Shown here: piece after piece, positions 57,992-63,787 of the stretch | How positions within the stretch are numbered: the stretch's first letter is position 1 | Layout of the letters: each line of letters starts with the position of its first letter | Source: Hypericibacter terrae | GTDB lineage: Bacteria; Pseudomonadota; Alphaproteobacteria; Dongiales; Dongiaceae | Length of the DNA: 64,000 bases | Direction of reading: 5' to 3' | NCBI RefSeq assembly: GCF_008728855.1 | Contig: NZ_CP042906.1 | Coordinates: 1,116,001 to 1,180,000 of the forward strand | The notes under the pieces: model-generated | The model's database searches: none | Told to the model about the DNA's origin: nothing | Seen by the model: only the letters and a program-made list of their open reading frames with translations | Made by a program: the position numbers and the translations under genes

Positions 57992-58261
57992 TTTGGGCCT
58001 GCCCTGTCCCCCACCCTCAGGCCGACCAATGTTATGGTCAAGGCGGTTAACAACACTTGATGTCAAGCATGGGCTATCCGACCGGCCATGTCATCCAACC
58101 CTTTGGTCTTAACAGCATTTCTTCGCCCGCTTTATTGGATGCCTGACCAACGTGATGATGGCCCGGCGATTCGGCATTCCAAGCTTCGGCGATAAGGCCC
58201 AATCATTGCCGGGAGCCCGGCCCATGCCGGGGGCGGAAGCGCGGGGGGACGGATCCGCAGC

Positions 58262-59602
58262 ATGATCGACAGGAAGGGCAGGCTCGGGCTGTTCTTGGCA
58301 GCGGCGGGGCTGGGGCTGCTGCTGGTCGTCCTGGCCGCATTGAGGTCCGGACCGGCCTCCTGGGGCGGGGGGACCGGTGTTCTCCTTGCCGCCGGCGTTC
58401 TGCTGGGTCTCGGCGGACTGGGGATGGCCTGGCGGCAAATCGCCGCCCATTTCACCCATCTCGAGCGGCTGCGTGCGACCGTCCTGCTGCTGGGCGACCA
58501 GGGTGTGCCCATGCCGCCGCCGCGCAAGGGGCGCCCCGGCGCTCTGGACCGGCTGGAATTGGCCATCGCCGAACTGGGCGGCCATGAGATCGCCCGGCGC
58601 GAATCCCGCGACCGCCGGCTGGGCGCCGTTCTGGGGGCCCTCGATCAGGCGATCCTGGTGGTGACCCCGCAAGGGCAGATCAGCCTGGTCAATGCCGCGG
58701 CCAAAAGCCTGTTCGGCGAACGGGTGGCGCCGGGCTTGAGCGTGTTCGAGCTGTTCGAGCGGCGCAGCTTCGCCCGCACCCTGGATGAGGCCGCCTCTGC
58801 GGCGGCGCCCCTGGAGGTGGAACTGCCGAGTGTCGGCGGCACACCGATCGCGGCGACAGTGACCGACCTGGGCGAGGAGATGGGCGCGCTCCTGCGTTTC
58901 GCGCCGGGGCAGGCGGCCTTCCGGCGTCATCTCGAACATGATCTGGCGCTGCATGATCGGCCGCCGGCCGGCCGATCCGTCCATCACGAGATGGTTCTGA
59001 CCGAGCTGCCGATCCTGGTGTTCGATACCGAGACGACCGGGCTCGATGTCAGCAAGGACCGCATCGTGTCGGCGGGCGGCGTGCGCATGCAGGGCTTGCG
59101 CGTCTACCCGACCCACGTCTTCGACCTCCTCTGCGATCCGGGGATGCCGATACCGCCGCGTTCGACCGCGATCCATGGCATCACCGACGCGATGGTGGCC
59201 GGCGCGCCCAGCTTTGCCGATATCGCCGACCGCCTCGCGGCCGCCTGCCGGGACATGGTGGTGGTCGGGCACAATATCGGCTTCGACATGGCCATGATCG
59301 ATCGCGAGATGAAGCTGGCGGGCCGGGAATGGGTGCGGCCCGTGACGCTGGACACGCTCAATCTCTATGCCGCACTCCGGCCCCGCGCGACCAAGCTCGA
59401 TCTCGAGACGATCGCGGCCGATCTCGGCGTCGAGGTGCGGGGCCGGCACACGGCCCTGGGCGACGCGCTGATGACCGCCGAGATCTTTCGCCGGCTCGTG
59501 CCGATGTTGACCGGCGCCGGGATCGTGACGCTCTCGGCGGCGATCGGATTCGCCTTGCGACCGAAGGAAGTGGTGCGCCGGCAGCGGGCGGCGGGCTGGT
59601 AG
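58262..59602 (+). CDS. Membrane-anchored PAS-type sensor fused to DEDDh 3'-5' exonuclease
   Basis: A 446-residue protein. Two hydrophobic segments (residues about 8-28 and 38-57) anchor it. Residues about 115-225 form a PAS-like domain ('GALDQAILVVTPQGQISLVNAAAKSLFGE'). The C-terminal DnaQ-type exonuclease has ExoI VFDTETTGLD, ExoII VGHNIGFDMAM and ExoIII RHTALGDALMT with the DEDDh His. Linking an exonuclease to a membrane and a sensor domain is unusual but recurs in a family adjacent to CBS-DUF294 genes, as here (12 bp gap). Confidence 0.88.
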   Translation: MIDRKGRLGLFLAAAGLGLLLVVLAALRSGPASWGGGTGVLLAAGVLLGLGGLGMAWRQIAAHFTHLERLRATVLLLGDQGVPMPPPRKGRPGALDRLELAIAELGGHEIARRESRDRRLGAVLGALDQAILVVTPQGQISLVNAAAKSLFGERVAPGLSVFELFERRSFARTLDEAASAAAPLEVELPSVGGTPIAATVTDLGEEMGALLRFAPGQAAFRRHLEHDLALHDRPPAGRSVHHEMVLTELPILVFDTETTGLDVSKDRIVSAGGVRMQGLRVYPTHVFDLLCDPGMPIPPRSTAIHGITDAMVAGAPSFADIADRLAAACRDMVVVGHNIGFDMAMIDREMKLAGREWVRPVTLDTLNLYAALRPRATKLDLETIAADLGVEVRGRHTALGDALMTAEIFRRLVPMLTGAGIVTLSAAIGFALRPKEVVRRQRAAGW

Positions 59603-59614
59603 GAGCGGCAGACA

Positions 59615-61060
59615 GTGGAACGCGATCTGATCGAACGGGTCGACGTCTATCCCTACCGTCATCGGGTGGGCGAGGCGATGTCGAGCCCGCCGGTCACGGC
59701 CGCGCCCGAGGCGCTGTTGTCCCAGGCCGCGCAATTGATCAGCGACCGGCGCGTGAGCTCGGTGCTGGTGGTCGACGGCGAGAAGCGCCTGGTCGGCATC
59801 GTGACCGAGTATGACGTGGTCCGGGCGATCGCCAGGGACGGCGGCGCCGCGCTCGATCGGCCGCTCGCGAGTCTGATGGCGCATCCGGTCGCCAGCGTTC
59901 CGGCCGATGCCTTTCTCTATACGGCGCTCGCCCGCATGGGCCGGCGCGGCATCCGCCAGCTCGCGGTCAGCGATCCCGTCACCGGCGAGCTGGTGGGCGT
60001 GATCAGCGCCGGCGCGCTGTTGAAGGAACGTGCCAATCAGGCGCTGATGCTGGGCGACGAGATCGCCGACGCCAGGAGCGGCGCGGAGATGGCCCGGATC
60101 CGGGCGCGGTTGCCGGCGCTCGCCCGGTCGCTGCTGCAGGAGAAGCTGTCGGTGCTCGACGTCGCCGCCGTGCTGAGCGCGGTCCTGCGCGATATCAGCG
60201 CGCGCGCCGCCGAGCTGGCCGCGGAGAACATGGTGGCCGAGGGCCGCGGCCCGGCGCCGGCTTCCTGGTGTTATCTGATCCTGGGATCGGGCGGGCGCGG
60301 CGAGAGCCTGCTGGCGGCGGACCAGGACAATGCGCTGGTCCATGCGGGCCGCGAAATCGAGGACGATGGCTGGTTCGCCGAGCTCGGCCGGCGCGCCTCC
60401 GATCTGCTCGACGCGGCCGGCATTCCCTATTGCCGGGGCAAGGTGATGGCCTCCGAATCCGCCTGCCGGCACAGCCTCAAGGGCTGGCAGGGGCAGGTGG
60501 CGGAATGGGCCCGCCAGGCCGATCCCGGCGCGCTCCTGTCGGTCGATATCTTCTATGACTTCCAGCCGGTCCATGGCGACCGCCGCCTGGCCGAAGCGCT
60601 GCGGCGGGATGCGATGGCGGTGGCCCAGGACCGGGCCCTGCTGGCCCGCCTCAGCGCCACGCTCGACACGCGGGTTTCGGCCCTCACCCTGTTCGGCGGG
60701 TTCCGCATGAGCCAGGGTCGCGTCGATCTCAAACGCGGCGGTCTCCTCCCGCTTACCTCGGGCGCCCGCATCCTGGCGCTCAAGGCCGGTGTCGCCGCGA
60801 CCTCGACCTCGGCGCGGCTGGCGGGCGCGGCCACGGCGGGGCTGATCAACGCCAGCGACCTGGCCGGTCTGCAGGAGGCCGAGGAATTGATCATGCGGGC
60901 CATCCTCGAGCAGCAGATCGTCGATCTCGAAGGCGGCCGCGAGCCCGCGGCGCTGGTCGAGGTGCGGCGCCTGACGCGGTTTCAGCGGTCGAGCCTGAAA
61001 CGGGCCCTGAAGCTCATCGCCATGGTCGATGTGATCGTCAAGAACGCGCTCGTGGGGTGA
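59615..61060 (+). CDS. CBS-domain DUF294 nucleotidyltransferase
   Basis: A 481-residue protein starting at GTG 59615, with AGGAG 9 bases upstream. Two CBS domains (about 15-140; 'VLVVDGEKRLVGIVTEYDVVRAI', 'QLAVSDPVTGELVGVISAGALL') are followed by a helical segment and a DUF294 nucleotidyltransferase-like domain ('LILGSGGRGESLLAADQDNALV', GSxGR...DxD pattern) plus a C-terminal substrate-binding domain. Possibly adenosine-nucleotide sensing and protein nucleotidylylation. Elsewhere this pair lies next to a sodium/acetate symporter; none is visible here. Confidence 0.88.
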   Translation: MERDLIERVDVYPYRHRVGEAMSSPPVTAAPEALLSQAAQLISDRRVSSVLVVDGEKRLVGIVTEYDVVRAIARDGGAALDRPLASLMAHPVASVPADAFLYTALARMGRRGIRQLAVSDPVTGELVGVISAGALLKERANQALMLGDEIADARSGAEMARIRARLPALARSLLQEKLSVLDVAAVLSAVLRDISARAAELAAENMVAEGRGPAPASWCYLILGSGGRGESLLAADQDNALVHAGREIEDDGWFAELGRRASDLLDAAGIPYCRGKVMASESACRHSLKGWQGQVAEWARQADPGALLSVDIFYDFQPVHGDRRLAEALRRDAMAVAQDRALLARLSATLDTRVSALTLFGGFRMSQGRVDLKRGGLLPLTSGARILALKAGVAATSTSARLAGAATAGLINASDLAGLQEAEELIMRAILEQQIVDLEGGREPAALVEVRRLTRFQRSSLKRALKLIAMVDVIVKNALVG

Positions 61061-61162
61061 GCCGGACGAGGCGTTGAGTTCGGTGCGACAAGCTCACTCC
61101 ATGGGCTATCGGGAGTTTTTCAAGCTATTGATAATAGTAGGTTTATTTGGAGATATATTGTG

Positions 61163-61276
61163 AGTGCTAAAGTTCAACGAATTAGAGAATTCTAGAGGTC
61201 ACAGTATACCGATTTCAAAGCGAGGAGGGAGAAACTGGTATACTTTTAGTGCTAAAATTCCCTAATATAGGGAATT
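61163..61276. promoter_or_regulatory. AbiE promoter region with multiple repeats
   Basis: The region just before the AbiEi start is AT-rich and full of repeats. The inverted repeat AATTCCCTA-ATA-TAGGGAATT (61256-61276) touches the ATG. AGTATACC (61203-61210) and GGTATACT (61237-61244) form a spaced inverted repeat. AGTGCTAAAGTTC (61163-61175) and AGTGCTAAAATTC (61248-61260) form a direct repeat. TAGAGAATT (61183-61191) is a near match to the TAGGGAATT half site. AbiEi antitoxins bind such repeats to repress their own operon. Confidence 0.7.
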
Positions 61277-62122
61277 ATGGCTACTAAAATATACCGTAAG
61301 ACGCCTCGGCCTTCTCTGACCCGCTCTCATGGACGCCTCGCCGCCGTCCTGAGTGGCGCCGACCGGCTGATCCGCGTCGAAGACGTAATGGCGACGCTCT
61401 CGATGGATCGAAAAAGCGCAGCCAAGACATTGGCGCGCTGGTACGCGCAGCAGTGGTTGCAGCGCGTCGGGCACGGCCTCTACACGGCAATACCACTTGA
61501 TGCCCGAGCCACCGGGCAAGTGCTGGAGGACCCATGGATACTTGTGCCGCCATTGTTCAACCCTGCCTACGTGGGTGGTTGGACCGCGGCCGAGCATTGG
61601 GATTTAACTGAACAGCTCTTCCGCGCCATCATCGTATTCACTACTAAGAATATCCGCACGCGCCGGCGCAATGTTCACGGCATCACATTCCTCTTGCGGC
61701 ACATTCAACCGAACGCACTTTTTGGCACGCGCAATATCTGGCGTGGGCAGGTCAAGGTGCAGGTTTCGGATGCCCACCGCACGATCATCGACATGCTCGC
61801 AGATCCAGCAGTCGGCGGTGGTATCCGCCATGTTGCCGATTGCTTCGCAGCTTACTTCCAGCTCAAGGAGGCGAGCCCGGAAACGCTCATCCAGTATGCC
61901 GAGAAGCTCGGCAACGGCGCGGTCTTCAAGCGCATGGGTTTCCTCGCAGAAACGATTCCGAACCATAGAGCACTCATAGAAGCTTGCCGCGAGCGGTTGA
62001 CGCAAGGTAACGCGAAGCTCGATCCAGGGCTTGAATGCCCACGTCTCGTTAGGGCGTGGCGGCTCTGGATTCCGAAAACCTGGGCCGCGGTGCGACTCTC
62101 AGCAAAGGAGCGGCCATCATGA
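61277..62122 (+). CDS. abiEi: AbiEi-family antitoxin / autoregulator
   Basis: A 281-residue protein. The N-terminal winged HTH 'RLIRVEDVMATLSMDRKSAAKTLARWYAQQWLQRVGHGLYTAIP' (about residues 34-77) and the following antitoxin domain ('AYVGGWTAAEHWDLTEQLFR', 'VSDAHRTIIDMLADPAVGGGIRHV') are AbiEi features. It represses the operon and counteracts the AbiEii nucleotidyltransferase in type IV toxin-antitoxin/abortive infection systems. The stop overlaps the toxin ATG by 4 bases. GC is lower than in the flanking genes. Confidence 0.9.
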   Translation: MATKIYRKTPRPSLTRSHGRLAAVLSGADRLIRVEDVMATLSMDRKSAAKTLARWYAQQWLQRVGHGLYTAIPLDARATGQVLEDPWILVPPLFNPAYVGGWTAAEHWDLTEQLFRAIIVFTTKNIRTRRRNVHGITFLLRHIQPNALFGTRNIWRGQVKVQVSDAHRTIIDMLADPAVGGGIRHVADCFAAYFQLKEASPETLIQYAEKLGNGAVFKRMGFLAETIPNHRALIEACRERLTQGNAKLDPGLECPRLVRAWRLWIPKTWAAVRLSAKERPS

Positions 62123-63582
62123 TCGATCGCCGCGAACTCATGCTGCTTGCCGAAAACCTCGGTTTGCAGCCGCAGGTGGTCGAAAAGGATTATGTGCTCG
62201 GCTGGCTCCTGGCCGGCATTCGCGCCAACGCCGACCTTGGCGAACATTGGGTCTTTAAGGGCGGGACATGCCTCAAGAAGTGCTATTTCGAAACATACCG
62301 CTTCTCGGAGGATCTCGACTTCACGATCACCAGCGAGGCCCTGCTCGACCAGGTATTCCTGACCAAAGCGTTCGCTGACATTTCGGCCTGGATATACGAA
62401 GAAGTCGGCATCGAGATACCCGCCGAACGTTTGCGGTTTGACGTGTTCCGCAATAAGCGGGGCCGATTGGCGGCCGAGGGACGGGTATATTATCGTGGCC
62501 CTATTGCGCCCCGAGGCGGTGACCTTCCCCGCATCAAACTTGATCTCACGACAGACGAACTTCTGGCGTTGCCGCCGGTCGAGCGGCCCGTCGTTCATAC
62601 CTTCTCCGACGAGCCCGAGGCCGGGATTACGGCCCGTTGCTACGCCTTTGACGAAGTCTTCGGCGAGAAGGTGAGAGCGCTTGGTGAGCGCGCCCGGCCG
62701 CGCGATCTCTATGACGTGATCAACCTTTTCCGGCATGACGATCTTCAGCCGCAGCCAGGTGCCATTCTTGATGTGCTGAAACGAAAGTGCGACTACAAAG
62801 GCATCCAGTTGCCAACTCTGGATACAATCAGGGCTTTCCGTGAGGAATTGGCTGGGGACTGGCAGACGATGCTGGCACACCAGTTGCCTGCTTTGCCGCC
62901 GCTTGAGTCGTTTTGGAACGCTCTACCAGAATTCTTTGCATGGCTGGCTGGCGGTTTCCGTCCGGCCATGCCGCAAGCCTATCCGCTCGCTATCGGAGAA
63001 GAAACTTTACGGCAGCCACTTGGTGCTCTCTCTGGTCCCGGCATGGTGGCATCCGCATTGGAGATCGTCCGATTTGCAGCCGCAAATCGACTCACAGCCG
63101 AGATCGACTATGTAAAGGAAAGCGGCGAACGCACGACGCGGGAAATTGAAGCTTATTCGCTTCGCAGGACGAAGGCCGGCGATATCGTGCTGCACGGCTT
63201 CGACATTAGCAGGAATGATCACAGAAGCTATCGGACGGATCGTATACGCGGCGCGCGCGCGACCGGGCGCGTTTTCGTTCCAAGGTATGCGGTGGAACTC
63301 ACGCCAAGCGGCAAGCAGGAAATCCCCCCAATGGCACAACCCGCTTCGAGGGCGACCTCCAGCAGAGGCTTTGGAGGAATGACGAGGCGCTCTCCCACAC
63401 AATCGCCCTACAGATCCGCTACCTCGAAGCGGCAGGCTTCCGGACCCACCTATGTCTACCAATGTCCCCTGTGCTCAAGGAGATTCCAGCGAAAGAGCCA
63501 GGACACCGCTCTGCGTGCCCATAAGACTCCGGATGGTCGGGATTGCTCTGGTCGAATCGGCTTTCTAGCCGAAATCCGCTGA
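62119..63582 (+). CDS. abiEii: AbiEii nucleotidyltransferase toxin with WYL-like and zinc-finger C-terminus
   Basis: A 487-residue protein, well over the usual AbiEii length of about 300. The nucleotidyltransferase core has KGGTCLKK (about 47-54), RFSEDLDF with Asp65 and Asp67, Asp142 (IKLDLT) and the C-terminal [10 protein letters not shown] (191-200). Residues about 305-395 resemble a WYL domain ('[20 protein letters not shown]', '[18 protein letters not shown]'). The tail carries Cys449-x2-Cys452-x15-His468-x7-Cys476, a probable zinc site. AAAGGAG precedes the ATG, which overlaps the antitoxin stop. The extra domains suggest ligand- or nucleic-acid-controlled toxicity. Confidence 0.88.
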
Positions 63583-63787
63583 GATACTGGGATGGAAGGC
63601 AAGGCAGGTACCGTCTTTCTCGAACTCCGTACCGCAGATCTGGGGATGGCAGCCCTGCCCAAAGGCCGCTTTGCGGGAAGGCCGGCTTTGCGTTAAGAAG
63701 ACCGCCTTTCCCGGGCCGGGCGCCGATATCGACGGGCTGCGCCCTCCGGGTTCCCGACCAGGGTATGAACCGAGGAGCGTAGGGCCG

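What the first reader, a model, noticed from the sequence alone, without database searches (positions are those of the whole stretch)
62119..63582. AbiEii toxin fused to a WYL-like domain and a zinc finger
The toxin has about 190 extra residues. They resemble a WYL ligand-sensing domain (about 305-395) and end in a CCHC-type zinc site (Cys449, Cys452, His468, Cys476). WYL domains regulate several phage-defence systems. The fusion suggests a toxin that senses nucleic acid or a ligand, which could be a variant defence architecture.
Basis: partly seen in the sequence, partly recalled or inferred. Interest (0 to 1): 0.75.

Follow-up and report, generated by a model that had tools for sequence, protein, structure and literature searches.

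The report
AbiE toxin with WYL-zinc finger tail
A bacterial self-poisoning (type IV toxin-antitoxin) enzyme carries a built-in tail made of a nucleic-acid-sensing WYL barrel and a zinc finger, a layout kept unchanged in hundreds of species, so the toxin probably responds directly to DNA or RNA rather than only to its antitoxin.

Summary
The 487-aa ORF at 62119-63582 is an AbiEii nucleotidyltransferase (residues 1-280) followed by a WYL barrel (about 306-391), a basic unstructured linker (about 397-441) and a C2HC zinc finger (442-487). Pfam scores WYL above its curated cut-off. AlphaFold plus two structural aligners place it with PafBC, CapW, BrxR and DriD. C449, C452, H468 and C476 are invariant in 68 aligned sequences (homologues 46-84% identical). 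At least 237 stretches in a one-genome-per-species collection encode relatives, in many phyla. All 81 fetched homologous loci, like the window, have the cognate AbiEi antitoxin gene immediately upstream. A 21-bp palindrome (AATTC-N11-GAATT) recurs at a fixed place before the antitoxin gene. The operon is thus a type IV AbiE system. The WYL fusion is not new: Makarova et al. 2014 list WYL with DUF1814, and one PADLOC AbiEii profile already spans both domains. I found no description of the zinc finger; it occurs only on this toxin family wherever I looked. Four arginines needed for ssDNA binding in PafB are kept; the WYL tyrosine is not. Best reading: a nucleic-acid-gated AbiEii toxin. Ligand, gating and zinc binding are inferred, not shown.

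The parts
61171..61191 (.). second, weaker operator-like site AGTTC-N11-GAATT, 85 bp upstream of the main one
   Evidence: One mismatch to the family motif; many homologous loci also have two sites about 57-85 bp apart.
61256..61276 (.). 21-bp palindrome AATTCCCTAATATAGGGAATT abutting the antitoxin start codon; presumed AbiEi operator
   Evidence: AATTC-N11-GAATT exact in 17 of 77 loci against 0 in 30 shuffles; with up to one mismatch 36 against a mean of 1.1; mostly 70-77 bp before a fixed point in the antitoxin gene.
61277..62122 (+). AbiEi-family antitoxin, 281 aa
   Evidence: PADLOC PDLC02271 E=1e-119 over 13-270; Pfam AbiEi_4 and AbiEi_1 below cut-off; homologue upstream of the toxin in all 82 loci including the window.
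62119..62958 (+). AbiEii nucleotidyltransferase domain, residues 1-280
   Evidence: PF08843 6.5e-40; MenT3 Z 20.9, MenT4 Z 18.8; G48, G49, R61, S63, D65, D67, K184, R191, R195, D196, D199 invariant.
63040..63306 (+). WYL domain, residues about 308-396
   Evidence: PF13280 2.7e-8; Z up to 12.6 to PafBC, 12.1 to ssDNA-bound CapW; R341, R369, R372, R375 align with PafB R181, R208, R211, R214.
63307..63441 (+). basic low-complexity linker, residues about 397-441
   Evidence: pLDDT about 40; across 68 sequences length 22-48, K+R 17%, D+E 2%.
63442..63579 (+). C2HC zinc finger, residues 442-487: C449 (63463-63465), C452 (63472-63474), H468 (63520-63522), C476 (63544-63546)
   Evidence: Ligands invariant in 68 of 68 and in the divergent pair; pLDDT about 95; mean net charge +6.7.
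62119..63582 (+). whole toxin gene AbiEii-WYL-C2HC
   Evidence: PADLOC PDLC02317 E=1.3e-176 over 1-402; full-length homologues.

Best explanation
This is a type IV AbiE toxin-antitoxin operon whose toxin has a built-in nucleic-acid-binding regulatory tail. Shown by sequence and structure prediction: AbiEi-type antitoxin, palindromic operator-like sites, AbiEii nucleotidyltransferase with all four catalytic motifs, WYL barrel, basic linker, C2HC zinc finger. Inferred: the toxin stops growth by adding nucleotides to tRNA 3' ends, as MenT1 and MenT3 do; AbiEi represses the operon and restrains the toxin; the WYL groove, with the linker and finger, binds single-stranded nucleic acid that appears during phage infection or DNA damage, and this switches or localises the toxin, so that an AbiE system with a built-in sensor halts the infected cell.
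For: Catalytic motifs I-IV invariant (motif definitions in PMC3985639). NTase fold matches MenT3 and MenT4. WYL fold matches ssDNA-responsive regulators. Four arginines at positions needed for ssDNA binding in PafB are kept in 58-66 of 68 sequences. Tail very basic. Zinc ligands invariant over a wide taxonomic range. Antitoxin always present and its divergence tracks the toxin's (Spearman 0.73 for the NTase part, 0.61 for WYL, 0 of 200 permutations). Carried on conjugative plasmids, in a phage replication block, and beside restriction or other defence genes in some loci. Foreign composition and absence from 60 relatives.
Against: No binding, toxicity, zinc content or phage assay exists. The WYL tyrosine needed for ssDNA binding in PafB (Y196) is V or another aliphatic here, and R204 is not kept. 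The divergent subfamily (L094, L095) keeps the zinc finger but not the WYL arginines, so the finger may be the more important part and sensing by the barrel is not universal. Interdomain contacts in the model were not examined.
Confidence: 0.5

Rival explanations
1. The WYL-linker-zinc module is an RNA-docking tail that recruits the tRNA (or another RNA) substrate to the nucleotidyltransferase; it is not a sensor.
For: WYL is an Sm/Hfq-like barrel (Hfq and Sm matches Z 6-7); tail strongly basic; the finger is kept even where the WYL arginines are lost.
Against: MenT toxins act on tRNA without such a tail; the conserved arginines follow the ssDNA-binding pattern of PafB, for which the ligand is ssDNA (PMC11804915). 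One tail-less member exists (L063) but its activity is unknown.
Confidence: 0.3
2. The tail is an antitoxin-docking or autorepression module: it helps AbiEi hold the toxin inactive or bind the operator.
For: Antitoxin present in all 82 loci and co-diverging with the toxin.
Against: The divergent subfamily keeps the finger but shows no AbiEi gene next to it; AbiEi alone represses in characterised AbiE systems (PMC7319586).
Confidence: 0.12
3. The tail is a chance fusion or non-functional extension.
For: A few copies have stops or frameshifts in the tail (L017, L024, L031, L075) and one lacks it (L063).
Against: Zinc ligands and WYL core invariant in 68 sequences from many phyla; full architecture in nearly all of 81 fetched loci.
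Confidence: 0.02

Closest known systems
AbiE type IV toxin-antitoxin system (AbiEi/AbiEii; Streptococcus agalactiae, Lactococcus)
   Same: Operon order, overlapping genes, AbiEii motifs I-IV, AbiEi-type antitoxin, inverted-repeat operator.
   Different: Toxin has about 200 extra residues (WYL, linker, zinc finger); operator-like site is a 21-bp palindrome often repeated about 57-85 bp away rather than two 23-bp repeats 3 bp apart.
PADLOC AbiEii cluster PDLC02317 with AbiEi PDLC02271
   Same: Profile spans residues 1-402, so it already holds the NTase-WYL fusion; E=1.3e-176 and 1e-119.
   Different: The model stops before most of the linker and the zinc finger and is named only 'AbiEii'.
WYL + 'AbiGII-like nucleotidyltransferase (DUF1814)' fusion of Makarova et al. 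2014 (PMC4012209)
   Same: Same domain combination, proposed as ligand sensing coupled to an effector.
   Different: One phrase in a list; the main text never mentions zinc and has no antitoxin, operator or family description for it. Its supplementary file 6 could not be read.
MenT3 / MenT4 (Mycobacterium tuberculosis)
   Same: NTase fold (Z 20.9 and 18.8); MenT4's partner Rv2827c is an AbiEi homologue (PMC7319586).
   Different: About 290 aa, no WYL or zinc finger; 11-20% identity.
PafBC, DriD, CapW, BrxR (WYL transcription factors)
   Same: WYL fold and basic groove arginines; PafBC and DriD respond to ssDNA.
   Different: Those join WYL to DNA-binding domains and control transcription; here WYL follows an enzyme and precedes a zinc finger.

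Membership tests
AbiE type IV toxin-antitoxin | AbiEii/DUF1814 nucleotidyltransferase with motifs I (GG), II (R..DhD, x15 spacing), III (K...R), IV (+DxxD) | tested here: met
   PF08843 6.5e-40; G48-G49, R61, D65, D67, K184, R191, R195-D196..D199 invariant in 68; motifs from PMC3985639.
AbiE type IV toxin-antitoxin | AbiEi-family antitoxin gene immediately upstream, bicistronic | tested here: met
   PDLC02271 1e-119; 82 of 82 loci. Pfam AbiEi models hit below their cut-offs.
AbiE type IV toxin-antitoxin | inverted-repeat operator bound by AbiEi | tested here: inconclusive
   Conserved palindromes found at a fixed place; binding not testable here.
AbiE type IV toxin-antitoxin | toxicity and neutralisation without antitoxin-toxin complex; phage protection | not testable with these tools
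   Needs experiments.
WYL domain superfamily | Sm-like SH3 barrel scored by PF13280 and by fold | tested here: met
   34.1 bits against cut-off 21.8; 66 of 68 sequences; Z up to 12.6 to PafBC.
WYL domain superfamily | conserved basic residues of the ligand groove (PafB R181, R208, R211, R214) | tested here: met
   R341, R369, R372, R375 in the window protein; in 58, 66, 59 and 59 of 68 sequences.
WYL domain superfamily | eponymous W-Y-L motif, tyrosine needed for ssDNA binding in PafB (present only in a subset of WYL domains, so not a defining feature of the superfamily) | tested here: not met
   Positions 356-358 are I-V-L; only the L is invariant. The literature says the motif is not general.
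C2H2 / BED-type zinc finger | a Pfam zinc-finger model above its curated cut-off | tested here: not met
   Window protein: zf-C2H2_4 14.3 bits against 27; best homologue scanned in detail zf-BED 19.5 against 20.6.
C2H2 / BED-type zinc finger | bound zinc | not testable with these tools
   Four invariant ligands suggest it.

The most novel reading that the evidence does not exclude
A type IV toxin whose enzyme is directly switched by phage- or damage-derived single-stranded nucleic acid through a WYL-zinc-finger receptor in the same chain, so that sensing and killing lie in one protein and the antitoxin is only a brake; the divergent subfamily without an adjacent AbiEi gene would then be controlled by the tail or another partner.
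Probability: 0.3. Interest if true: 0.75.

Novelty: new variant of a known kind. Interest (0 to 1): 0.48.

Why it matters
How AbiE systems notice a phage is an open question. A conserved subfamily with a WYL barrel and zinc finger attached to the toxin gives a concrete, testable candidate for the trigger, and joins two fields (WYL ssDNA sensing and nucleotidyltransferase toxins) in one protein.

Tried and rejected
Looked for the zinc tail on other proteins: in 72,556 plasmids it hit only this toxin family (6 genes and one remnant); in 50,697 phage records nothing; in 398 Pseudomonadota genomes only the window genome and one remnant next to a transposase; in 30 genomes or plasmids that carry the family, no place other than the toxin itself. 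Structural databases gave no listed match for the zinc part; only residues 1-84 of the C-terminal model were covered, so its fold is untested. PDB sequence search with the antitoxin found nothing. The viral structure library gave mainly short WYL-like phage proteins. NCBIfam had no model for the toxin. Search of another phylum by locus handle was not accepted. Considered and rejected: pseudogene (open frame, conserved motifs), chance Cys/His (invariant), retroviral-type CCHC knuckle (spacing differs). Selenocysteine at the TGA of L017 was thought less likely than a point mutation or sequencing error and was not pursued. Defence-gene neighbours were counted without a matched control, so no enrichment is claimed.

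Full report
What is there. The ORF at 62119-63582 starts with ATG, encodes 487 residues, and its start overlaps the stop of an antitoxin gene at 61277-62122. Pfam finds AbiEii (PF08843, 6.5e-40, residues 29-269) and WYL (PF13280, 2.7e-8, 34.1 bits against a cut-off of 21.8, residues 313-380). PADLOC's best models are AbiEii PDLC02317 (1.3e-176, residues 1-402) and, for the upstream gene, AbiEi PDLC02271 (1e-119). The second-best toxin model, PDLC02304 (1.5e-67), covers only residues 1-273. Many plasmid relatives at 30-37% identity likewise cover only the toxin part, so the tail looks like an addition to an ordinary AbiEii.

Homologues. A genome collection of 84,980 species gave 237 matching stretches encoding relatives; the best 80 were fetched and nearly all align over the full length. 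Their titles name Alpha-, Beta- and Gammaproteobacteria, Acidobacteria, Deltaproteobacteria, Dadabacteria, Methylomirabilota, Latescibacteria, Nitrospinota, WOR-3 and others. One viral contig also has it. The family is rare: one intact copy, the window's own, among 398 Pseudomonadota genomes. In an alignment of 68 (homologues 46-84% identical to the window protein), C449, C452, H468 and C476 are invariant, as are the catalytic residues. WYL is detected in 66 of the 68. A few fetched copies are damaged: L017 (TGA in the codon of the second cysteine), L024 and L075 (frameshifts in the tail), L031 (stop in the linker, tail intact after it), L039 (stop in the NTase). L063 has no tail.

A second subfamily. 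Plasmid proteins of Sinorhizobium mexicanum (L094) and Sphingomonas parapaucimobilis (L095) are 26-28% identical, have AbiEii, a degenerate WYL-like segment (PADLOC WYL 9e-5 in L095) and the same C2HC finger, but no AbiEi gene upstream. The WYL groove arginines are mostly lost in them while all zinc ligands are kept. This suggests that the finger matters at least as much as the barrel.

Structure. AlphaFold2 with the 68-row alignment gave mean pLDDT 86 and pTM 0.76. The barrel (about 96) and the finger (about 95) are confident; residues 400-439 are not. The N-terminal 280 residues match MenT3 (Z 20.9, 3.2 A, 256 residues) and MenT4 (Z 18.8). Residues 306-391 match PafBC, ssDNA-bound CapW, BrxR and DriD (Z 9-11 in the full model; up to 12.6, at about 2 A over 80 residues, in the C-terminal model), well above generic Sm/Hfq barrels (Z 6-7). 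The finger itself was not covered by any listed match, so its fold is open. By sequence its first half resembles C2H2 fingers weakly, and one homologue comes just under the BED cut-off.

Ligand groove. HMMER aligns the WYL profile with M. smegmatis PafB residue by residue (a weak hit by sequence, E about 0.1, but the fold match is strong). PafB R181, R208, R211 and R214 fall on R341, R369, R372 and R375, kept in 58, 66, 59 and 59 of 68 sequences. In PafB, mutating R211/R214, R181 or Y196 abolished ssDNA binding (PMC11804915). Y196 falls on V357, aliphatic in most of the family, and R204 is not kept. So the basic groove is retained but one element needed for ssDNA in PafB is not; the ligand could be ssDNA, RNA or something else.

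Charge. The linker has 17% K+R and 2% D+E on average, and the finger a mean net charge of +6.7. Both fit nucleic-acid binding.

Operon. An AbiEi homologue lies directly upstream in all 82 loci. Distances between antitoxins and toxins correlate (Spearman 0.73 with the NTase, 0.61 with WYL, 0 of 200 permutations as high). Upstream of the antitoxin gene a 21-bp palindrome, AATTC-N11-GAATT, is exact in 17 of 77 loci against none in 30 shuffles, and within one mismatch in 36 against a mean of 1.1. It lies mostly 70-77 bp before a fixed codon, often with a second copy about 57-85 bp further up. In the window the sites are 61256-61276, ending at the start codon, and 61171-61191. I found the motif by looking at these same loci, and some loci are close relatives, so the shuffle comparison is descriptive. 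Characterised AbiE operons are repressed by AbiEi at inverted repeats (PMC7319586).

Mobility. The two genes have G+C 58-59% and third-position G+C 64-67%, against 86-89% in the two genes upstream. In the same-genus genome G001 the flanks at 58106 and 63661 are 107 bp apart, so 5.5 kb (two high-GC genes plus the AbiE operon) is absent there; whether in one step is unknown. None of 60 relatives has the toxin. In L001 only the operon matches, not its surroundings. Others lie on conjugative Rhizobium plasmids and inside a block of phage replication genes (L081). Among 77 proteins flanking the operon in 33 loci, four are type I methyltransferase subunits, and single ones match AbiEi, DrmMII, reverse transcriptase or TIR models; there was no matched control.

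Mechanism. Most likely this toxin, like MenT1 and MenT3, adds nucleotides to tRNA 3' ends (inference from family: PMC11375011), and its tail binds nucleic acid and thereby gates or places the enzyme. The docking rival is close, and nothing computed here separates the two.

Prior knowledge. Makarova et al. 2014 list 'AbiGII-like nucleotidyltransferase (DUF1814)' among WYL fusions, the only held paper naming both DUF1814 and WYL. The searches of the held library returned no paper that, by title and abstract, describes an AbiEii zinc finger, but the library lacks most subscription journals, and the 2014 supplement could not be read. Hence 'new variant of a known kind': the WYL fusion is known, while the zinc finger, its invariance, the operator and the divergent subfamily appear undescribed.

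Noticed in passing
window 58107-63660 against G001 (L143:13690-13797): A 5.5-kb segment (DEDDh exonuclease gene 58262-59602, CBS-DUF294 nucleotidyltransferase gene 59615-61060, and the AbiE operon) is replaced by 107 bp in a same-genus genome.
   Followed up: partly
L017 5001-6416: The codon for the second zinc cysteine is TGA with the rest of the tail in frame: point mutation, sequencing error or, less likely, selenocysteine.
   Followed up: no
L094 4001-8417: Divergent toxin without AbiEi; downstream a DUF3800-like gene (just below Pfam cut-off) and a second nucleotidyltransferase gene pair on a conjugative Sinorhizobium plasmid.
   Followed up: partly
L081 4079-7356: The AbiE operon sits between RuvC-like resolvase and VapE-type helicase/primase genes in a viral contig, followed by a 295-aa gene of unknown family (by eye SIR2-like; no Pfam match).
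   Followed up: partly
L093 (G240): Remnant of the divergent subfamily's tail directly after an IS66-like transposase gene (named by eye).
   Followed up: no
window 61202-61243: A further inverted repeat AGTATACC...GGTATACT (8-bp arms, 26-bp spacer) lies between the two operator-like sites.
   Followed up: no
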